Assembly: GCF_022662575.1 (NCBI RefSeq)
Contig: NZ_JALBFU010000003.1
Location: forward strand, 124,879-188,878
Length of the DNA: 64,000 bases
Direction: 5' to 3'
From: Luteimonas aquatica
GTDB lineage: Bacteria > Pseudomonadota > Gammaproteobacteria > Xanthomonadales > Xanthomonadaceae
The number at the start of each line of letters is the position of its first letter. The first letter of the stretch is position 1. The notes under the pieces are model-generated. The model was not told the DNA's origin. It made no database searches and saw only the letters and a program-made list of their open reading frames with translations. A program made the position numbers and the translations under genes. Positions 10,433-60,023 of the stretch are shown here, piece after piece.

Positions 10433-11521
<1,089 letters not shown>

Positions 11522-22754: not shown

Positions 22755-23429
22755 ATGTCCGACCGTCCGCGCCTCGTCGTCCTGGCCTCCGGCCGCGGCA
22801 GCAACCTGCAAGCGCTGATCGACGCGATCGCCGCAGGCACGCTGGCCGCGCGCATCGTCGCGGTGTACTCCGACAGGCGGGACGCCGGCGCCCTGCAGCG
22901 GGCGCGCGAGGCCGGCATTCCGGCGCATGCGCTGGCGCCCAGGCAATACCCTTCGCGCGCCGAGTACGATGCCGCCCTGTTCGCGCGCATCGACGCCGAG
23001 ACGCCGGACCTGATCGTCTGCGCCGGCTACATGCGCCTGATCGATCCGCGCGAGGTGGAGTTCCGGCGCGGGCGCATCATCAACATCCATCCTTCGCTGC
23101 TGCCGGCCTTCAAGGGCCTGCGCACGCACGCGCAGGCGCTCGCCGCCGGCGCGTGCGAGCACGGCGCCAGCGTCCACTACGTCACGGCCGACCTGGACGG
23201 CGGCCCGGTGATCGCCCAGGCACGCGTGCCGGTGCTGCCCGGCGACGACGCCGAGACCCTGGCCGGGCGCGTGCTGGAGCACGAGCACCCGCTGCTGGTG
23301 GAAACCGTGCGCTGGCTGGCCGCCGGCCGTATCGCCCTGCCCGCCGACGCCGCGCCTGAAGCGCCCATTCATGTCGACGGCGTGCCGCATGCGCCGCTTC
23401 AGCTGGCATCCAACCAGCGCTTTGCATGA
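22755..23429 (+). CDS. purN: phosphoribosylglycinamide formyltransferase
   Basis: A 224-residue GAR transformylase (10-formyl-THF dependent). It has the N-terminal LVVLASGRGSNLQALIDAI (phosphate-binding), the folate-site LIVCAGYMRLI and the catalytic INIHPSLLPAFKGL segment (Asn, His), followed by the aspartate in YVTADLDGGPVIAQ. It catalyses the third purine step in the cytoplasm. Its stop overlaps an ATG of the next DUF3108 gene (ATGA at 23426), so the three downstream genes may be co-translated. Confidence 0.96.
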   Translation: MSDRPRLVVLASGRGSNLQALIDAIAAGTLAARIVAVYSDRRDAGALQRAREAGIPAHALAPRQYPSRAEYDAALFARIDAETPDLIVCAGYMRLIDPREVEFRRGRIINIHPSLLPAFKGLRTHAQALAAGACEHGASVHYVTADLDGGPVIAQARVPVLPGDDAETLAGRVLEHEHPLLVETVRWLAAGRIALPADAAPEAPIHVDGVPHAPLQLASNQRFA

Positions 23430-24193
23430 TGGCCGGCATCATGAAACGCCTTCTGCTGACCGCGGCTTTCGCGCTCGCGGCGTGGCTGCCCAGCGGCCAC
23501 GCCCAGGATGCCGCGCCCGCGCCCGACGCGGCCGCCCCTCCCGCCCTGCAGCCGTTCGTGGCCAGCTACCAGGCCTACAACGAAGGCAAGCTGGCCGGCC
23601 ACGCCACCATGCGCGTGGTGCACAACGGCGGCGCGCAGTGGCGCGCCGACCTGGGCATCGAGGGCAGCCGCGGCTTCGCCGGCATCCTCGGCCTCAACAT
23701 CCAGCAGAGCACGGTGTTCGACGATGTCGGCGAGCAATACCGGCCGCTGAGCCAGAGCACCGTGCGCAAGGGCCTGTTCCTGGGCAAGAAGGTGCTCGGC
23801 GTGTACGACTGGAACGCGCGCAGCGCGCAGTGGAAGGGCGACCTGAAGAAGGAGCGCCTGAAACCCATCGCGCTGCAGGACGGCGACATGAACGGCCTGC
23901 TGATCGACCTGGCCATCATCCGCGACGCGGTGCCCGGCAAGCGCCTGCAGTACCGCTTCGTCGAGCTCGGCCGCGCCCGCGACCACATCTACGAGGTGGC
24001 GAACGAGTCCGAGAACGTGCAGGTCGGCGAGCTGAGCTATGCCGCCCTGCGCGTTTCACGCGTGAACGGCGGCAACGATGAGACCATCTTCTGGGTCGCC
24101 GACGGCGTGCCCACGCCGGTACGCATCCTGCAGCGCGAGAACGGCCAGGACGGCATCGATCTGCGCCTGACCGAATACCAAGGAGTGAACTGA
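23426..24193 (+). CDS. DUF3108 family exported protein (first of tandem pair)
   Basis: A 255-residue protein with a signal peptide (MKRLLLTAAFALAAWLPSGHAQ) and a periplasmic DUF3108 domain: FVASYQAYNEGKLAGHATMRV, QQSTVFDDVGEQYRPLSQST, YDWNARSAQWKGD and a C-terminal TPVRILQREN. Family members sit beside purMN in many gammaproteobacteria; their function is not known to me. The start is uncertain: ATG 23426 overlaps the purN stop, while ATG 23441 gives the cleaner signal peptide. Its paralogue follows with a one-base overlap. Confidence 0.88.
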   Translation: MMAGIMKRLLLTAAFALAAWLPSGHAQDAAPAPDAAAPPALQPFVASYQAYNEGKLAGHATMRVVHNGGAQWRADLGIEGSRGFAGILGLNIQQSTVFDDVGEQYRPLSQSTVRKGLFLGKKVLGVYDWNARSAQWKGDLKKERLKPIALQDGDMNGLLIDLAIIRDAVPGKRLQYRFVELGRARDHIYEVANESENVQVGELSYAALRVSRVNGGNDETIFWVADGVPTPVRILQRENGQDGIDLRLTEYQGVN

Positions 24194-24888
24194 TGTCCCC
24201 CACCCGCATCTCCCCCGCGAAAGCCTCCCTCGCCGCCGCCTTGGCGCTCGCCTTCGTCAGCGCCCCCGCGCTGGCGATCAAGCCCTTCTCCGCCGACTAC
24301 CAGGCCAACTACATGGGCATCGCCGGCGCCGGCAAGATGACGCTGGAATCGCAGGGCGGCGACAAGTGGAAATACACGCTCTCCATCGGCAGCGGCGGCA
24401 TCCAGCTCAACCAGAGCACCGTGTTCGAGGACAAGAACGGACAGTGGCGGCCGCTGTCGGGCAAGGACTCGGCCCTGCTGCTGATCAAGAAGACCGACAA
24501 GACCGCCAACTACGACTGGAACAAGGGCGTGGCCACCTGGGGCGGCGACGTCAAGCCGGACCGCTCCGGCCCGGTGAAGCTGGAGACGGGCGACGTCGAC
24601 AGCCTGCTGCTCAACCTCGCCCTGGCCCGCGACGTCGCCGCCGGCAAGCCGCTCAACTACCGCCTGGTCGACGAGGGCCGCGTCAAGCAAATCAGCTACA
24701 AGGTCGCCGGCAAGGAGTCGATCACCATCGACGGCCAGTCCAAGCAGGCCACCAAGGTGGTGCAGGCCAATACCGAGGGCAAGCAGATCACCGCCTGGAT
24801 CGTCGACGGCATGCCGGTCCCGGCGCGCATCCTGCAGCGCAAGAACGGCAAGGACGACATCGACCTGCAGGTGAAGACGGTGCACTGA
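24193..24888 (+). CDS. DUF3108 family exported protein (second of tandem pair)
   Basis: A 231-residue paralogue of the preceding gene, with a signal peptide ending near residue 29 (ALALAFVSAPALA before IKPFSADYQANYMGI). The same landmarks occur: NQSTVFEDKNGQWRPLSGKD, YDWNKGVATWGGD, PVPARILQRKNGKDDID. An AGGAG ribosome site lies in the end of the first gene, and the codons overlap as TGATG. A strong terminator begins 28 bases after the stop, closing the purN-DUF3108-DUF3108 unit. Confidence 0.88.
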   Translation: MSPTRISPAKASLAAALALAFVSAPALAIKPFSADYQANYMGIAGAGKMTLESQGGDKWKYTLSIGSGGIQLNQSTVFEDKNGQWRPLSGKDSALLLIKKTDKTANYDWNKGVATWGGDVKPDRSGPVKLETGDVDSLLLNLALARDVAAGKPLNYRLVDEGRVKQISYKVAGKESITIDGQSKQATKVVQANTEGKQITAWIVDGMPVPARILQRKNGKDDIDLQVKTVH

Positions 24889-24956: not shown

Positions 24957-24997
24957 CCCTGGGGAAAACCCCAGGGTGTGATTTAGGGTCAGCCCTA
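24957..24997. promoter_or_regulatory. two palindromes, probable operator of the giant repeat protein gene
   Basis: CCCTGGGG-AAAA-CCCCAGGG (24957-24976) is followed seven bases later by TAGGG-TCAG-CCCTA (24984-24997). Both share the AGGG/CCCT core. The second overlaps a possible -10 hexamer TAGCTT (24996-25001), about 70 bases before the start codon. With the terminator just upstream, these belong to the downstream gene. A dimeric regulator binding both sites is inferred. Confidence 0.5.
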
Positions 24998-25071
24998 GCT
25001 TGGATGGGCGTCCCGGTTTGGCGAGCATGGCGGCATCCGATGATCGGCGCCACCTTGCCAGGGAGACCGCG

Positions 25072-28000
25072 ATGATTCCGCGCGAAGACGTCTACGTACC
25101 GCCACCGCCGCCGCCTCCGCCGCCGCCTCCCCCGCCGCCGCCCCCGCCGCCGGAGCTGGCCAAGAAGCCGCCGGAGGAAAAGAAGCAGATCGTCGACGGC
25201 ATGACCGATCAGCAGGTCAAGGACTACAAGACCGAAGTCGACAAGCTTCCCAAGAGCGAGCAGCAGGACGTCGCCAACAGCCTGGCCAAGGATCTCGACG
25301 CCAAGCAGCTGGCGAAGCTGCGGCCGGCCTTCAGCGAGGCCGACAGCGGCAAGAACGCCGTCGACCAGGCGGTCGACAATTTCGGCAACGCGCAGGTCAA
25401 GGCCGACTACCCCAAGGAAGTCATCGCCAACGATCCCGCCATCAAGGGCACGCTGACCAAGCTCGGCTTCGACCAGCAGGAGATCGACAACGCCTCGGCC
25501 AAGACGCTCACCGCGCTGACCAAGGCCGCCGAATACGTCGACCAGAAGGAATACGGCAAGGCCTTCGGCGAGCTGAAGCAGCTCGCCAGCGACGGCCAGC
25601 AGGCGCTGGCGGAAAAAGCCTTCGCCGGCGTGGCCAAGCAGATCGAGAACCTGCCCGAGCCGGTGCGCGACATCCTCAGCGACGGCGCCGCGGTCAAGGA
25701 GCTGATCAACGCCGCGCCCGGCGTGGTCGACAAGCTGCTGCAGGGCGACATCCCGGGCGCGATCGGCGCGGTCGGCGACAACAAGCCGCTGCGCGACGCG
25801 GTGATCGACGCCGCGCTGAAGAATCCCGATTCCGACTTCAGCAAGGCGGTGAAGAACCTCGGCCTGGACGCGGCCAAGCTGAAGGAGGCCGGCGACGCCG
25901 CGCCCTCGCTGGTGCAGGCCGCGCAGCACGCCGCCAAGGGCGAGTGGCCCGAGGCCGGCGCGGCGCTGGCCAGCGCCGCCGAGAAGGCGCCCGAACTCGC
26001 CGCCGAAGGCATCAAGCGCATCGCCGAGAAACTGCCCGAGCCGGCCAAGTCGATCCTCGGCGACGACAAGGTCTCCGAGCAGCTGGCCAAGGCCAGCCCC
26101 GACGTGCTCAAGGCGCTGGTCGAGGGCAAGCCGGTCGAGGCGCTCAAGGGCCTGGGCGGGAACAAGGAACTGCGCGATGCGGTGATCGACGCCGCACTGA
26201 AGGACAAGGACTCCGATTTCAGCAAGCAGGTCGACAAGCTCGGCCTGTCCGCCGACGATCTGAAGAAGATCGGCGACGGCGTGCCGGACGCGATGAAGGC
26301 GATCGAGCACGCCGCCAAGGGCGAATGGAAGGAAGCGGCGCTGTCGCTGATCGACGCCACCAGCCATGCGCCGGAAGTCGCGGCCAAGGGCATCGAGAAG
26401 ATCGCCTCGCACCTGCCCGAGCCGGCCAAGTCGATCATCGGCGACGCCAAGGTCTCCGAGCAGCTGGCCAAGGCCAGCCCCGAGGCGCTCAAGGCGCTGG
26501 TCAACGGCGATCCCAGCGGCGCGCTGCAGCACTTGGCGCAGGACAAGGAGTTGCGCGACGCGGTGATCGACGCCGCGCTCAAGGACAAGAACTCCGATTT
26601 CAGCAAGAAGGTCGACAAGCTCGGCCTCACCGCCGACGACCTCAAGCAGGCCGGCGACGGCCTGCCGGACGTGATGAAGGCGGTCGACCTCGCCGCCAAG
26701 GCGCAGACGCCGGAAGACTGGAAGAACGTCGGCCTGGCGCTGGCCGATGCGGCCGGCAAGGCGCCGGACGTGGTCGCCAAGGGCATCGAGGCGCTGGCCG
26801 GCAAGCTGCCCGAGGGCCTGGCCAAGACCGTCCTCACCGACCCCGCCGTCGCCAAGGAACTGGCCAAGGCCAGCCCCGAGGCGATCAAGGCCATGCTCAA
26901 CGGCGATGCCGCCGCCGCGCTCAGCGCGGTGGGCGGCAACAAGCCGCTGCGCGACGCGGTGATCGACGCCGCCGTCACCGACCCCAAGGTCAAGCCGCTG
27001 CTCGAGAAGTACGGCCTGACCGCCAACGACCTTAAGCAGGCCGGCGACGCCGCCGGTCCGCTGTTCAACGCCGTCAAGTACGCCGCCGAGGGCAAGGTCA
27101 GCGAGGCGCTGGCCGAGTTCCAGAAGGTCGGCGACGCCGCGCCCGACCTGCTGCCCAAGGTCGCCAAGGCGATCTACGAGAAGCTCCCCGAAGGCACCCA
27201 GCAGAAGCTCAAGGAACTGGGCTACGGCATGGAGAACATCGGCGAGGTCGCCAAGGCCCTGCCCTCGCTGGTCAAGGCCGGCGAGGCGATGGTCAAGGGC
27301 GACTGGAAGACCGCGATCAGCGAGATCCTCAACGCCGGCGAGGCCGCGCCCACCGTCGGCAAGGAAGCGCTGCAGAAACTCGGCCAGCAGATCCCGGAAG
27401 GCAAATTCGACCTGGTCAAGAAGCTGCTCGCCGACGACAAGGTCGCCTCGGGCCTGGCCAGCGACACCGCCCTGCACGATGCCATCGACAAACTGCTCGA
27501 CGGCAAGACGCTGGAGGGCGCCAGCGAGCTGCTGCACAACGACGGCATCCGCGACGCCGTGCTCGAGGTCGTCGGCAAGGATCCCGCCGTTGCCGGCGCG
27601 CTGGAAAAGGTCGGCCTGACGGCGGAGGACCTCAAGCAGGCCGGCGCCGCGGCGCCGCACCTGCTCGACGCCGGCGTGGCGCTCTCCCAGGGCAAATGGC
27701 CCGAGGCGCTCGACGCGCTGGGCAAGGTGCAGGACGCCGCGCCCGACCTGCTCGGCAAGGTCGCCGGCAAGATCTACGACGCGCTGCCGCAGCCGATCAA
27801 GGACAAGTTCGGCGAGCTGAACATCACCCGCGAGGACCTGCTCGAGGCCGGCGCCGCGCTGCCGCATTTCGTCGACGCGGTGAAGGCGCTCGGCAACCCG
27901 GACGGTCCCGACTGGCAGGGTGCGCTGCAGGCGATCGGCCAGGCGGTCGACGCCGCGCCGGGCCTGGTCACCAAGGCGATCAACGCGCTCGGCGCCAAGA

Positions 28001-29244
28001 TTCCGGACAAGCCGGAAACCCAGCTGCTGCGCTCGATCCTCACCGACGAGAACCTGATCAAGACCCTGGTCAGCGACAAGTCGCTGCACGGCTCGCTCAA
28101 GCAGATGCTCGACGGCGACATCGCCGGCGGCCTGAAGGGCGTGGGCGACAACGAGCAGGTGATGGGCGCCCTGGCCGACGTGCTGTCCAAGGACAAGGCG
28201 CTGATGGCGCGGCTCGAGCCGCTGGGCATCAAGACCGTCGACGACCTCAAGCAGCTCGGCCCGTCGGTCGCCAACATCATCGAGATGGCCGACGCCATCA
28301 AGAGCGGAAACGTCGGCGACACGATCAAGGCCTTCGCCACCTTCGCCAAGGAACTGCCCGACGGCATCAAGCAGCAGCTGATCGACACCGTCGTCGACAA
28401 GTTCAAGCTCAAGCCGGAGATGAAGCAGCTGCTCTCGGGCGTGCTCGAGGCGGCGACCACGCCGGAAGTGGCGCAGGCGATCGGCGATGCGGTCAAGGCC
28501 TTCGCCAGCGGCAATCCGGGCGAGTTCATCAAGGCGCTCGGCAACGCCGGCAAGATCATCGCCGAGAAGACGCCGGACCTGGCGGTCACCTTCCTCAACG
28601 CGCTCAGCAAGCTGCCCGGCCCGGTCGGCGAGTTCTTCTCCGATCCCAAGCTCAACGAGGGCATCGTCAAGTCCGGTGCGCTGTCGAGCTTCTTCGACGC
28701 GGTGACCAAGGTCGCCGACGGCGACATCGGCGGCGCCATCGGCTCGCTCGGCGACGCCATCGGCAAGCTGATCAGCTACGGCGATCCGGCGCAGATCGGT
28801 CCCTTCAGCGTCGGCATCGGCCCGCTGAGCAAGGACTTCGGCCCCTACGACCTGCCCTTCGGCAAGGACTCGATCGACCTGATCGGCCGCCTGGTCACGC
28901 AGTTCGTCGAGGCGATGCCGGACAAGGTCAAGAACTTCCTCAAGGAGAAGGCGGGCGAAGCCGTCGCCAGCACCGGCCTGAAGTCGATCCCGGTGGTCGG
29001 TCCGGTGATCGGCGTGGTCGACGCCGGCAGCGACCTGATCAGCAGCATCTCCAACGGCGAGAGCGGCCTGACCATCGCCTTGAACGCCGCGGACCTGGCC
29101 ATCAACGCCGCCAGCTTCTTCCCGCCGGCGCAGGCGGTGCTGACGCCGCTGAAGACCCTGCTCGGCGTGGCCAAGGGCGTCAACGCCACCGTCGAGTTCG
29201 TCAACGGCATGCAGGACTTCGGTCAGCAATTCACCGGAATGTGA
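25072..29244 (+). CDS. giant poly-proline, tandem helical repeat protein of unknown function
   Basis: Not recognised. The 1390-residue product starts MIPREDVYV, then 18 consecutive prolines (residues 10-27), then a charged helical segment (ELAKKPPEEKKQIVDGMTD). No signal peptide is visible. From about residue 195 to 1200 it consists of helical repeats of roughly 127 residues marked by LPEPAKSILGD, VSEQLAKASPE.LKAL, LRDAVIDAALKD.DSDFSK, KLGLTADDLKQAGD and a closing AP....GI..IA. Two adjacent copies are nearly identical at DNA level (26041 and 26422, 381 bases apart); later copies diverge and some are shortened. The C-terminal ~130 residues are hydrophobic and glycine-rich (SIPVVGPVIGVVDAGSDLIS, AADLAINAASFFPPAQAVL). 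ATG 25072 has a GGGAGA ribosome site; an in-frame 25000 start lacks one. Confidence 0.85.
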   Translation: MIPREDVYVPPPPPPPPPPPPPPPPPPELAKKPPEEKKQIVDGMTDQQVKDYKTEVDKLPKSEQQDVANSLAKDLDAKQLAKLRPAFSEADSGKNAVDQAVDNFGNAQVKADYPKEVIANDPAIKGTLTKLGFDQQEIDNASAKTLTALTKAAEYVDQKEYGKAFGELKQLASDGQQALAEKAFAGVAKQIENLPEPVRDILSDGAAVKELINAAPGVVDKLLQGDIPGAIGAVGDNKPLRDAVIDAALKNPDSDFSKAVKNLGLDAAKLKEAGDAAPSLVQAAQHAAKGEWPEAGAALASAAEKAPELAAEGIKRIAEKLPEPAKSILGDDKVSEQLAKASPDVLKALVEGKPVEALKGLGGNKELRDAVIDAALKDKDSDFSKQVDKLGLSADDLKKIGDGVPDAMKAIEHAAKGEWKEAALSLIDATSHAPEVAAKGIEKIASHLPEPAKSIIGDAKVSEQLAKASPEALKALVNGDPSGALQHLAQDKELRDAVIDAALKDKNSDFSKKVDKLGLTADDLKQAGDGLPDVMKAVDLAAKAQTPEDWKNVGLALADAAGKAPDVVAKGIEALAGKLPEGLAKTVLTDPAVAKELAKASPEAIKAMLNGDAAAALSAVGGNKPLRDAVIDAAVTDPKVKPLLEKYGLTANDLKQAGDAAGPLFNAVKYAAEGKVSEALAEFQKVGDAAPDLLPKVAKAIYEKLPEGTQQKLKELGYGMENIGEVAKALPSLVKAGEAMVKGDWKTAISEILNAGEAAPTVGKEALQKLGQQIPEGKFDLVKKLLADDKVASGLASDTALHDAIDKLLDGKTLEGASELLHNDGIRDAVLEVVGKDPAVAGALEKVGLTAEDLKQAGAAAPHLLDAGVALSQGKWPEALDALGKVQDAAPDLLGKVAGKIYDALPQPIKDKFGELNITREDLLEAGAALPHFVDAVKALGNPDGPDWQGALQAIGQAVDAAPGLVTKAINALGAKIPDKPETQLLRSILTDENLIKTLVSDKSLHGSLKQMLDGDIAGGLKGVGDNEQVMGALADVLSKDKALMARLEPLGIKTVDDLKQLGPSVANIIEMADAIKSGNVGDTIKAFATFAKELPDGIKQQLIDTVVDKFKLKPEMKQLLSGVLEAATTPEVAQAIGDAVKAFASGNPGEFIKALGNAGKIIAEKTPDLAVTFLNALSKLPGPVGEFFSDPKLNEGIVKSGALSSFFDAVTKVADGDIGGAIGSLGDAIGKLISYGDPAQIGPFSVGIGPLSKDFGPYDLPFGKDSIDLIGRLVTQFVEAMPDKVKNFLKEKAGEAVASTGLKSIPVVGPVIGVVDAGSDLISSISNGESGLTIALNAADLAINAASFFPPAQAVLTPLKTLLGVAKGVNATVEFVNGMQDFGQQFTGM

Positions 29245-29408: not shown

Positions 29409-29924
29409 TCAGGCCAGGCCCAGGCCGCGCAGGAACGCCAGCGTGTCGGCGACGCGCTCGCCCAGCGGCGCTCCCGCCTCGAGTTCGAGCAGGCGTCCGG
29501 GCGCGAGGTATTGTCGGGTGCGTTCGTGGATGAAGCGCTTGGCTTCGGTGCGGAACATGTGGCCGTCGGCCTCGGACACGCGCGGCGCGGTGGCGCGCTT
29601 CTCCACTTCCGACCAGTCCACCACGCAGGCGTCGACGTGGTCGGCGTAGCTGAGCCAGGCCGTGCCGTACAGGCCCAGGCGCGGCTTGTCGCCGTGCAGC
29701 CGCTGCAGCGTCAGGCGGTAGTAGCCGGCGAGTTCGTCCACCGGACCGAGGACGTGGCCGGCGTTGCGCAGCAGGGCATCGAGCGTGTCCTTGTCCCGCG
29801 CCATCGCCTTGGAGATTTCCTCGTTGCTCACCGGGTGGTATCCGGCCTGGGCGAAGACGTCGTCGGCCCAGGCATCCGCGTCCAGCGGCGGGTTGTCGAG
29901 GATGATCACGATCTGATCGCTCAT
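29409..29924 (-). CDS. hypothetical cytosolic protein opposing the giant repeat gene
   Basis: Not recognised. A 171-residue acidic protein without a signal peptide or membrane segment. It begins MSDQIVIILDNPPLDADAW, has a middle part with AGYYRLTLQRLHGDKPRLGLYGTAWLSYADHVDACVVDW, and ends in a helix (RLLELEAGAPLGERVADTLAFLRGLGLA). A GGGGG ribosome site and a TATACT -10 hexamer (29951-29956) precede it. It converges on the giant repeat gene and is divergent from the lipoprotein pair. No functional link is demonstrated. Confidence 0.65.
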   Translation of the reverse strand: MSDQIVIILDNPPLDADAWADDVFAQAGYHPVSNEEISKAMARDKDTLDALLRNAGHVLGPVDELAGYYRLTLQRLHGDKPRLGLYGTAWLSYADHVDACVVDWSEVEKRATAPRVSEADGHMFRTEAKRFIHERTRQYLAPGRLLELEAGAPLGERVADTLAFLRGLGLA

Positions 29925-29994: not shown

Positions 29995-30561
29995 ATGAAA
30001 CTCCAATCGCTGACCCTGCTTGCCGCCGCCGTGCTCGCCTGCACGGCATGCAAGAACGATATCGAGGCCGAAGCCGCCGACGCCTCGCCGATGGCGGCGG
30101 ACGCCGCGATGCCGGCCGACACGGCCGCCGGCGCGCCCGCGGCGGCAGCCGCGCCCGTGCCCCCGCCGCCGGGCGAGGCTGCGGGCACCTGGACCTACGC
30201 GGAAGAAGGCGGCAAGCGCACCGCCAGCATCGCCGGACGCGCCGGCGGCGCGCAGTTGGTTTTCAGCGACGACCCGGTCTGGGGCCGCGGCGCCTACGTC
30301 GAATTCGCCCAGGACGACATCAACTGCCCGACCGGCTGCAAGGCGCAGCTGAGCATCGACGGCGGCGCGGCCAAAACCGTGTCGGCCTCGCGCCCGGAAA
30401 CGCCGCAGCCGCGCCTGGCGCTGCGCGAGCCGCTCGAGCTCTGGCAATCGATCGCGGGCGCCGGGACGCTGTCGATCGAGTATCCGTCCAAGTCCGGCAC
30501 GGGCAAGGTCGAATTCGACGTCGCCGGCGCCGATGCCGGCAAGCTGCCGGGCTGGAAGTGA
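29995..30561 (+). CDS. lipoprotein with CPTGC motif (first of tandem pair)
   Basis: A 188-residue predicted lipoprotein: signal MKLQSLTLLAAAVLACTAC with two possible lipobox cysteines (16 and 19), then an Ala/Pro-rich linker to about residue 62, then a compact domain. That domain contains LVFSDDPVWGRGAYVEFAQDD, CPTGCKAQLSIDGG, SASRPETPQP and LALREPLELW. The next gene encodes a second copy of this domain without an export signal. The family is not recognised; the conserved Cys-Pro-Thr-Gly-Cys pair suggests a disulfide or metal site. A GGAGAA ribosome site lies before the ATG. Confidence 0.8.
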   Translation: MKLQSLTLLAAAVLACTACKNDIEAEAADASPMAADAAMPADTAAGAPAAAAAPVPPPPGEAAGTWTYAEEGGKRTASIAGRAGGAQLVFSDDPVWGRGAYVEFAQDDINCPTGCKAQLSIDGGAAKTVSASRPETPQPRLALREPLELWQSIAGAGTLSIEYPSKSGTGKVEFDVAGADAGKLPGWK

Positions 30562-30563
30562 CC

Positions 30564-31019
30564 ATGGGCGCCTGGAGCTACGAGAGCACGCCGGTGGACG
30601 GCGGCACGCGCGTCAGCGCCGCGGTCACCAGCATGCTGCGCGTCTACCTGGACGAGAGCGGCGCGAAATTCGTGCGCCTGGTGTTCCGCGACGATCCGGT
30701 CTGGGGCTACGACGCGCATCTGGCGCTGGAAAGCGGCGATTTCGACTGCCCGACCGGCTGCAGCGTCGAGATCGCCGTCGACGGCGGGCCGCAGCGCACC
30801 GTGCTGGCCTCGCGTCCGGAAGCCTCGGCGCCGGTGCTCTCGCTGCGCGAGCCGCGCCAGCTCTGGTACGCCTTGCGCGACGCGCAATTGCTGACGGTGG
30901 ATTTCCCGGCGCGCGGCAAGGGCACGCAGCGCGCCACCTTCGACGTCAGCGGCCTGGACCGCTCGCGCCTGGACTGGGACCAGCAGCCCTATGCGAAGGA
31001 TTTCGGCGTGACGGCGTGA
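30564..31019 (+). CDS. CPTGC-motif protein lacking a signal peptide (second of tandem pair)
   Basis: A 151-residue paralogue of the preceding lipoprotein domain. It shares LVFRDDPVWGYDAHLALESGD, CPTGCSVEIAVDGG, LASRPEASAPVLSLREPRQLW and the aromatic C-terminus, but begins MGAWSYESTPVDGGTRV with no signal sequence or lipobox. The ATG lies two bases after the first gene's stop, so coupling is likely. The frame stays open upstream into the first gene (to 30048), but only the part after the ATG shows conservation. If cytosolic, the cysteines would probably be reduced. A secretion partner or fusion history is possible. Confidence 0.72.
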   Translation: MGAWSYESTPVDGGTRVSAAVTSMLRVYLDESGAKFVRLVFRDDPVWGYDAHLALESGDFDCPTGCSVEIAVDGGPQRTVLASRPEASAPVLSLREPRQLWYALRDAQLLTVDFPARGKGTQRATFDVSGLDRSRLDWDQQPYAKDFGVTA

Positions 31020-59576: not shown

Positions 59577-60023
59577 ATGACCCCCTGGATTCCACGCACC
59601 GCCCTGCTCTGCGCGGCCCTGTGCGCGGCGACGGCGCAGGCCGGCCTGCGCACCTCGCGCACCGTCGTCGTCGACAACAAGTCGATGACGGCATCCGGCT
59701 CGCTCGGCACCGCGCACAACAGCAGCAGCCGCTACGAAAGCATCGGCTGCAACGCCGAGATCCTGGGCGACGGCGACGAGAACAAGCTGGTGCTCTGCAC
59801 CGCCTACGACGCCAGCGGCAACTTCGCGTTCTGCAACGGCTGGGGCGACCCGCAGATCTTCGACCTGGCCATGCACATCGACGCCGGGTCCTTCGTCCAG
59901 TTCGAGTGGGACGCCAACCGCAACTGCTCGCGGCTGCTGGTGCGCAAGTCCTCCAATACCGAACCCAAGCGCACGCTGCCGCCGCAGGAAACCCTGCCGG
60001 CCAGCGAGCTGCCGGACAGCTGA
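59577..60023 (+). CDS. small exported protein (first of GSLGTA tandem pair)
   Basis: Not recognised. A 148-residue product with a signal peptide (TALLCAALCAATAQA before GLRTSRTVVVD, cleaved near residue 22). The mature part has MTASGSLGTAHNSSSRYESIGC, later cysteines in LCTAYDASGNFAFCNGW and NRNCSRLL, and a beta-rich pattern that suggests disulfides. ATG 59577 has GGAGA ten bases upstream. The next gene is a paralogue with the same GSLGTA and IGC motifs. Confidence 0.72.
   Translation: MTPWIPRTALLCAALCAATAQAGLRTSRTVVVDNKSMTASGSLGTAHNSSSRYESIGCNAEILGDGDENKLVLCTAYDASGNFAFCNGWGDPQIFDLAMHIDAGSFVQFEWDANRNCSRLLVRKSSNTEPKRTLPPQETLPASELPDS

What the first reader, a model, noticed from the sequence alone, without database searches (positions are those of the whole stretch)
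25072..29244. Giant poly-proline helical-repeat protein with no recognised family
1390 residues, no signal peptide, 18 consecutive prolines at the N-terminus, helical repeats of ~127 residues with near-identical DNA in adjacent copies, and a hydrophobic glycine-rich C-terminus of the kind seen in pre-toxin or membrane-inserting regions. This is the best candidate in the window for an undescribed system, for example a scaffold, contact-dependent effector or cytoskeleton-like filament. All three roles are inference.
Basis: partly seen in the sequence, partly recalled or inferred. Interest (0 to 1): 0.75.

Follow-up and report, generated by a model that had tools for sequence, protein, structure and literature searches.

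The report
Giant type III secretion effector candidate
A giant, previously unclassified helical-repeat protein of a Luteimonas bacterium carries the same front domain and the same putative DNA switch as a family of toxin-like proteins that goes with a type III secretion injector, which suggests that it is cargo of an injector whose cargo in these non-pathogenic bacteria is largely unknown.

Summary
The gene is real (window 25072-29244, 1390 aa, under purifying selection) and its protein reaches no family cut-off. It has 18 prolines, a ~95-aa N-terminal domain, six full and two half copies of a ~127-aa helical unit, and a conserved 290-aa C-terminus. The N-terminal domain, not the proline run, is the key: it also fronts nuclease (one in the same genome), Ntox44, RTX-M91 peptidase and two unclassified protein types. 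Of 26 domain-positive genomes among 297, 25 have a non-flagellar type III secretion system (T3SS; 59 of 297 overall). A palindrome, CT[AG]GGG-N4-CCC[CT]AG, lies upstream of this gene, of 33 of 46 domain genes (one mismatch allowed) and in T3SS regions of 21 of 26 genomes (64 strict sites per Mb, against 0.6 in 1.6 Mb of the own genome). The repeat body and a convergent 171-aa partner gene recur in seven genomes; in two Myxococcota MAGs the N-terminus differs and no palindrome was found. Best reading: a modular effector of the T3SS regulon whose N-domain directs export. Export, toxic mechanism and target were not shown.

The parts
24959..24974 (.). strict palindrome CTGGGGAAAACCCCAG, putative operator shared with T3SS regions
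24983..24998 (.). second palindrome copy TTAGGGTCAGCCCTAG, one mismatch
   Evidence: also present in L. panaciterrae
25072..29244 (+). 1390-aa helical-repeat protein, candidate T3SS effector
   Evidence: dN/dS 0.13
25099..25152 (+). 18 consecutive proline codons (residues 10-27), not conserved in distant relatives
25147..25431 (+). shared N-terminal domain (about residues 26-120), seven helices predicted; defines the family
   Evidence: dN/dS 0.039
25642..28368 (+). helical repeat region, residues 191-1099: six full units of about 127 aa and two half units
28369..29241 (+). non-repeat C-terminal region (residues 1100-1390), tail FG[QE]QFTG in all seven relatives, two moderately hydrophobic stretches (28963-29019, 29065-29121)
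29409..29924 (-). 171-aa convergent partner gene, next to the large gene in all seven genomes found to hold it; immunity protein, chaperone or other partner

Best explanation
P0001 is a member of the T3SS regulon of this Luteimonas and most likely a T3SS-exported effector of modular build. Shown by sequence: its N-terminal domain is shared by proteins with unrelated C-termini (nuclease, Ntox44, M91 peptidase, two unclassified types); genomes with the domain nearly always have a non-flagellar T3SS; P0001, most domain genes and T3SS regions share one palindrome that is rare in the sampled part of the genome. Inferred: the palindrome is the operator of a T3SS regulator (the cluster seems to encode a kinase and response regulator, read by eye); the N-terminal domain with its disordered, often proline-rich leader is the export or chaperone-binding module; the helical repeats and conserved C-terminus are the payload, perhaps acting at a membrane or as a binding scaffold inside the target cell; the convergent 171-aa gene protects the producer or chaperones the protein.
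For: N-domain in 26 of 297 family genomes (only the 16 best candidates per genome were scored, so a lower bound); 25 of these have SctJ at E<=1e-30 (59 of 297; Fisher 4.6e-19, not corrected for relatedness). Five of the 59 lie a little below the curated cut-off (151-159 bits against 161.95), four of them domain-positive; flagellar cross-matches stay at or below 71 bits. TssK of the T6SS is absent from this genome and in 13 of the 26. In the genus all 21 domain-positive genomes are T3SS-positive, 46 of 52 overall (p 0.036). Outside the family the four hits with E<1e-15 (397 genomes) are all T3SS-positive, 12 of 80 tested. Own T3SS cluster: SctU, T, R, V and J over curated cut-off, SctN and SctD by best hits. 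Palindrome: 35 strict sites in 545,424 bases of T3SS windows, 21 of 26 genomes, against 1 in 1,599,538 own-genome bases; 33 of 46 domain genes with at most one mismatch within 450 bp, 14 of 20 outside the genus used to find it (split counted by hand). Three domain-negative, T3SS-positive Luteimonas (G018, G022, G034) also have it in the T3SS window. Co-members carry toxin or effector domains over Pfam cut-off: Endonuclea_NS_2 9.8e-19, Ntox44 8.8e-16, M91 4.8e-50.
Against: Secretion was not shown. P0001 has no recognisable toxic domain. The T6SS marker is also enriched among domain carriers (13 of 26 against 61 of 271, p 0.003). Of the 35 strict sites in T3SS windows, 10 lie within 500 bp before a recognised T3SS gene; the rest precede other ORFs of the windows (counted by hand), and 5 of 26 genomes have none. 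The genomes are related, so sites are not independent. In two Myxococcota MAGs the same body has another N-terminus and no palindrome. No domain gene lies in the 12 T3SS loci scanned, six of them only ~3.5 kb; one (G537) lies beside a cluster. 25 of the 31 domain-negative Luteimonas have a T3SS, so the domain is accessory. Lysobacter T3SS clusters are reported to lack a secretin (PMC4657364, passages), so it is not certain that this type secretes. 13 of 46 domain genes lack a near-match to the palindrome (one with only 71 bases upstream), among them the M91 gene L105 and the Ntox44 genes L045, L046 and L065.
Confidence: 0.65

Rival explanations
1. P0001 is in the T3SS regulon but is a part or helper of the injector (translocon-like, extracellular scaffold or large chaperone), not an injected payload.
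For: The palindrome also precedes structural T3SS genes; the C-terminus is moderately hydrophobic; none of the ten cluster proteins scanned was recognised as a translocator.
Against: Only 3 of 52 Luteimonas have it although 46 of 52 have a T3SS, so it is not an essential part; its N-domain is shared with nucleases and toxin domains.
Confidence: 0.16
2. The domain marks polymorphic toxins exported by another system (T6SS, X-T4SS, eCIS or an unknown one); the T3SS link is phylogenetic.
For: Nuclease and Ntox44 payloads are typical of interbacterial toxins (typical use recalled); the nuclease class has a conserved downstream partner in 10 of 10 other loci, with a weak YezG-like match for one (0.017, below cut-off) and none for another; the T6SS marker is mildly enriched.
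Against: T6SS marker absent here and in half of the carriers; the shared palindrome ties these genes to T3SS regions. X-T4SS and eCIS were not tested.
Confidence: 0.11
3. A cytoplasmic scaffold or filament protein, as the first reader also proposed.
For: Long all-helical repeat; no signal peptide by eye.
Against: Shared N-domain and shared upstream site with toxin-domain genes; sporadic distribution; body swapped between N-termini across phyla.
Confidence: 0.05

Closest known systems
T3SS effectors of the M91 (NleD/HopH-like) kind
   Same: An N-domain protein of genus g35 ends in Peptidase_M91 (4.8e-50; Pfam describes it as 'Effector protein'), a family whose known members are T3SS effectors (recalled)
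   Different: P0001 itself has no M91 or other known catalytic domain; it has a defined helical N-domain rather than only a disordered signal
Polymorphic toxin systems (e.g. LXG/YeeF with YezG immunity, recalled; PMC3482391 seen only in a search listing)
   Same: Constant N-terminal module with exchangeable C-termini (nuclease, Ntox44), small conserved neighbour gene
   Different: Linked to a T3SS and a shared upstream site; the partner of P0001 is convergent and matches no immunity family
Needleless T3SS* of Myxococcus xanthus (PMC12075869, passages seen)
   Same: Predatory bacterium, T3SS-like export apparatus said to lack secretin, needle and translocon; Myxococcota MAGs hold the P0001 body with its partner gene
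   Different: Their copies lack the N-domain and palindrome; whether those MAGs have a T3SS* was not tested
Hrp/PIP-box regulon of Xanthomonas (recalled)
   Same: One DNA box controls T3SS operons and scattered effector genes
   Different: Different sequence: CT[AG]GGG-N4-CCC[CT]AG palindrome, in Luteimonas, other genera of the family, Frateuria and Dyella; control by it is inferred

Membership tests
T3SS effector | Exported through the T3SS | not testable with these tools
   needs a secretion assay
T3SS effector | Genome encodes a non-flagellar T3SS | tested here: met
   SctJ, SctU, SctT, SctR, SctV over cut-off in own genome
T3SS effector | Co-regulated with the T3SS | tested here: inconclusive
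   shared palindrome before P0001, sctU and other cluster genes; sequence evidence only, expression not measured
T3SS effector | Dedicated chaperone next to the gene | tested here: inconclusive
   171-aa acidic partner (pI 5.2) in 7 of 7, no family or PDB match
Polymorphic toxin | Shared N-terminal module with varied C-terminal payloads | tested here: met
Polymorphic toxin | Recognised toxic C-terminal domain in P0001 | tested here: not met
   no family over cut-off
Polymorphic toxin | Adjacent immunity gene | tested here: inconclusive
   conserved convergent partner, function unknown
T6SS effector | T6SS in the genome | tested here: not met
   no TssK match
X-T4SS effector | C-terminal XVIPCD and X-T4SS | not tested
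   X-T4SS markers were not searched; no Pfam match over cut-off at the C-terminus
Known anti-phage defence protein | Match to a PADLOC model | tested here: not met
   0 families up to E 1

The most novel reading that the evidence does not exclude
Luteimonas, Lysobacter-like, Frateuria- and Dyella-type bacteria run a T3SS that attacks bacteria (or other microbial prey): its regulon, marked by CT[AG]GGG-N4-CCC[CT]AG, arms it with polymorphic toxins with cognate immunity-like genes (nuclease, Ntox44, the giant repeat protein with its 171-aa partner, a LysM-lysozyme-CHAP wall hydrolase beside one cluster), and the giant payload is shared with predatory Myxococcota through exchange of its N-terminal export module.
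Probability: 0.2. Interest if true: 0.93.

Novelty: new variant of a known kind. Interest (0 to 1): 0.78.

Why it matters
T3SSs of non-pathogenic Lysobacter are on record almost without effectors: PMC4657364 (passages) states that no effector genes related to those of known pathogens were identified, and PMC13163355 (passages) names four predicted ones near its cluster. The N-domain and the palindrome together give a sequence rule that lists candidate cargo genome-wide and makes the question of what these injectors deliver, and to whom, directly testable. If the targets are bacteria, it would be an antibacterial injectisome with polymorphic toxins, a class I do not know to be established (recalled). 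I saw no paper on this domain family or this box in the listings; these listings were partly capped (15 of 83, 15 of 21, 10 of 407), most papers were not opened, and the library holds open-licence papers only.

Tried and rejected
Poly-proline run as the key feature: rejected, because it is variable or absent in relatives. T6SS delivery: rejected for this genome. Homology between the hydrophobic C-termini of P0001 and the ~850-aa class: looked likely by eye, not supported (hhalign E 0.17). N-domain genes inside T3SS clusters: none in 12 loci; one beside a cluster (G537), which by itself could be chance. Fold searches: no PDB match at E<=0.001 for the N-domain or for residues 191-1390; VIA-align best Z 4.7 for the N-domain, with unspecific helical repeats and MgtE-like folds; residues 1234-1390 were modelled at pLDDT under 50, so their fold is untested. 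PDB sequence profiles: nothing useful. Plasmid searches of P0001 and the partner: no match. Palindrome as a terminator: not favoured, since it precedes genes and I saw no T-run after it at P0001; not tested further. Palindrome as chance: composition-matched palindromes give 0 or 1, and other spacers 0 or 1, in the T3SS windows; in 1.32 Mb of the own genome such control palindromes give 0-2 against 4 for the true one, so the weight there is in where the sites lie, not in their number. A single site in one 20-kb T3SS locus is not significant alone (37 of 200 shuffles reach it at one mismatch). A third one-mismatch site in the window, at 59840-59855, lies inside open reading frames and was taken as chance. 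Weak domain hits were set aside: those with E of about 1e-8 to 1e-3 in the order, of which G559 was read (a signal-peptide-like protein), and G207 in the family (likewise), which is nevertheless counted among the 26. The match of G035 was dropped as a proline-run artefact; one search found no domain there.
Full report
Observation. The ORF at 25072-29244 encodes 1390 residues with 18 prolines at 10-27. No match reaches a curated cut-off in Pfam or NCBIfam; PADLOC gives none and PHROGs only weak ones. The protein period is 127 aa. A profile of four copies finds six full and two half units between 191 and 1099 and none in 20 shuffles. DNA copies of 150-300 bases are about 62-83% alike, one 64-base block 97%. 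dN/dS against the L. panaciterrae copy is 0.13 overall and 0.04 in the N-terminal domain. AlphaFold, with only three sequences, gives an all-helical chain for 191-1390 (mean pLDDT 72.7) but fails in the last ~157 residues.

The N-terminal domain. The same genome holds a second protein, 307 aa, with the same N-terminus (41% identity) and a nuclease C-terminus (Endonuclea_NS_2 9.8e-19). A search of 61 genomes with P0001 matched 14, full-length in the own genome and two others, elsewhere over the N-terminus only (the G035 match is a proline-run artefact and was dropped). Open reading frames behind the domain fall into classes: nuclease; Ntox44; a ~850-aa and a ~470-aa unclassified class; RTX plus M91 peptidase (620 aa, 4.8e-50); and the P0001 type. 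hhalign links P0001, the ~850-aa and the ~470-aa class over this domain (in one search the alignment runs on weakly beyond it). In 42 members the best E-values against Pfam and NCBIfam are 0.0008 and 0.004, with scattered names (cut-offs are not shown there). The domain is predicted as seven helices, mean pLDDT 81. Many members lack the proline run.

T3SS link by occurrence. In 297 genomes of the family, 26 have the domain (16 candidates per genome scored, a lower bound) and 59 a non-flagellar SctJ at E<=1e-30 (54 over the curated cut-off, five at 151-159 bits, four of these domain-positive); 25 of the 26 are in both, the exception (G207) being a weak hit on a signal-peptide-like protein. Fisher p is 4.6e-19, not corrected for relatedness. 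TssK of the T6SS is in 74 of 297 and in 13 of the 26 (p 0.003) and is absent here. In the genus, 21 of 52 have the domain (all candidates scored) and 46 of 52 a SctJ of 145 bits or more (many a little below the curated cut-off of 161.95); no domain-positive genome lacks it (p 0.036). In the order sample 28 of 397 match (11 candidates per genome scored); outside the family 20 match, four of them at E<1e-15, all four T3SS-positive; of the other 16, one is T3SS-positive (12 of 80 tested). The T3SS cluster of the own genome was read and several parts named by curated models; needle and two-component labels are mine, by eye and by position.

T3SS link by a shared DNA site. A dyad search in 250 bp upstream of 21 Luteimonas domain genes gave CTAG-N6-CCCC in 15 of 21, against 9 of 1500 random stretches, that is CT[AG]GGG-N4-CCC[CT]AG. 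P0001 has a strict copy at 24959-24974 and a one-mismatch copy at 24983-24998. In the own genome strict copies were found before P0001, before the nuclease gene, 123 bp before sctU and before a 374-aa gene beside the T3SS cluster. In 80 further stretches of the own genome (1.6 Mb) there is one more, 190 bp before an unclassified 929-aa ORF (no Pfam match). T3SS windows of 26 genomes hold 35 strict sites in 545 kb, in 21 of 26 genomes. Ten of the 35 lie within 500 bp before a recognised T3SS gene (sctU, sctV, putative needle-like genes); the others precede further ORFs of the windows (counted by hand). Three of the 21 are Luteimonas without the domain (G018, G022, G034). Control palindromes and other spacers give 0 or 1 in the same windows. 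Of 46 distinct domain genes, 23 have a strict and 33 a near site within 450 bp, 14-113 bp before the domain start; among the 20 outside the genus used for discovery, 6 strict and 14 near (split counted by hand). The expectation from the own-genome background (5 near sites in 1.6 Mb) is well under one gene. In 11 loci around domain genes (188 kb) the 8 strict sites all sit at the domain genes. The genomes are related, so sites are not independent events; but the genes carrying the site differ in kind, and the site is found in two bacterial families.

The body and its partner. Full-length relatives of P0001 are in 3 of 52 Luteimonas, the own one included, in Frateuria sp. Soil773 and Dyella acidisoli (46% and 37%), and in two Myxococcota MAGs (45-46% in the best segment). 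In the latter the N-terminus is a different Ala/Lys-rich stretch and no palindrome with up to two mismatches lies within 450 bp. In all seven genomes a homologue of the 171-aa gene at 29409-29924 sits convergently right after it. Among the 134 loci then held, and the 100 fetched later, it occurs nowhere else; no whole genome was searched for it. It has no family or PDB match. So the cassette is body plus partner, and the N-terminus is exchangeable. The MAG assignments rest on their record titles and on neighbouring genes read by eye.

Interpretation. Shared domain, co-occurrence and shared upstream site together make P0001 a likely member of a T3SS regulon and probably an exported effector; export, toxicity, regulator and target are inferred. 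Literature: PMC4657364 reports no effectors and no secretin for Lysobacter T3SS (passages); PMC13163355 reports a secretin outside the cluster, a two-component pair in it and four predicted effectors (passages); PMC12075869 describes the needleless T3SS* of Myxococcus (passages). On checking, one membership row (co-regulation) was lowered from met to inconclusive and the confidences moved by one hundredth because the T6SS enrichment and the place of the sites are now told in full.

Noticed in passing
L210:13744-16533 (own genome, C2): 929-aa ORF with no Pfam match, preceded by the only strict palindrome in 1.6 Mb of background: possibly another member of the T3SS regulon
   Followed up: partly
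L019:9740-10663 and 10696-11067 (own genome, C2): N-domain nuclease protein with a 123-aa neighbour conserved in 10 of 10 other loci of this class, weakly like the YezG immunity family (below cut-off)
   Followed up: partly
L105:3924-5786: N-domain fused to RTX repeats and an M91 (NleD-like) peptidase in a genome of another genus; no palindrome found upstream
   Followed up: partly
L128:1516-3069 (G537): LysM, phage-tail-lysozyme and weak CHAP domain protein beside a T3SS cluster, with the palindrome upstream: a wall hydrolase possibly in the regulon
   Followed up: no
L093:1390-2514 and the similar start at L094:6484-7620: Proline-rich 374-aa protein with a hydrophobic C-terminus beside the T3SS cluster and a strict palindrome upstream: candidate translocon part
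   Followed up: no
29995-31019: Two tandem proteins sharing the motif DDPVWG beyond the partner gene, the first lipoprotein-like by eye and conserved next to the locus in two other Luteimonas
   Followed up: no
23426-24888: Two adjacent proteins of similar sequence by eye, directly upstream of the locus, followed by a terminator-like hairpin before the palindromes
   Followed up: no
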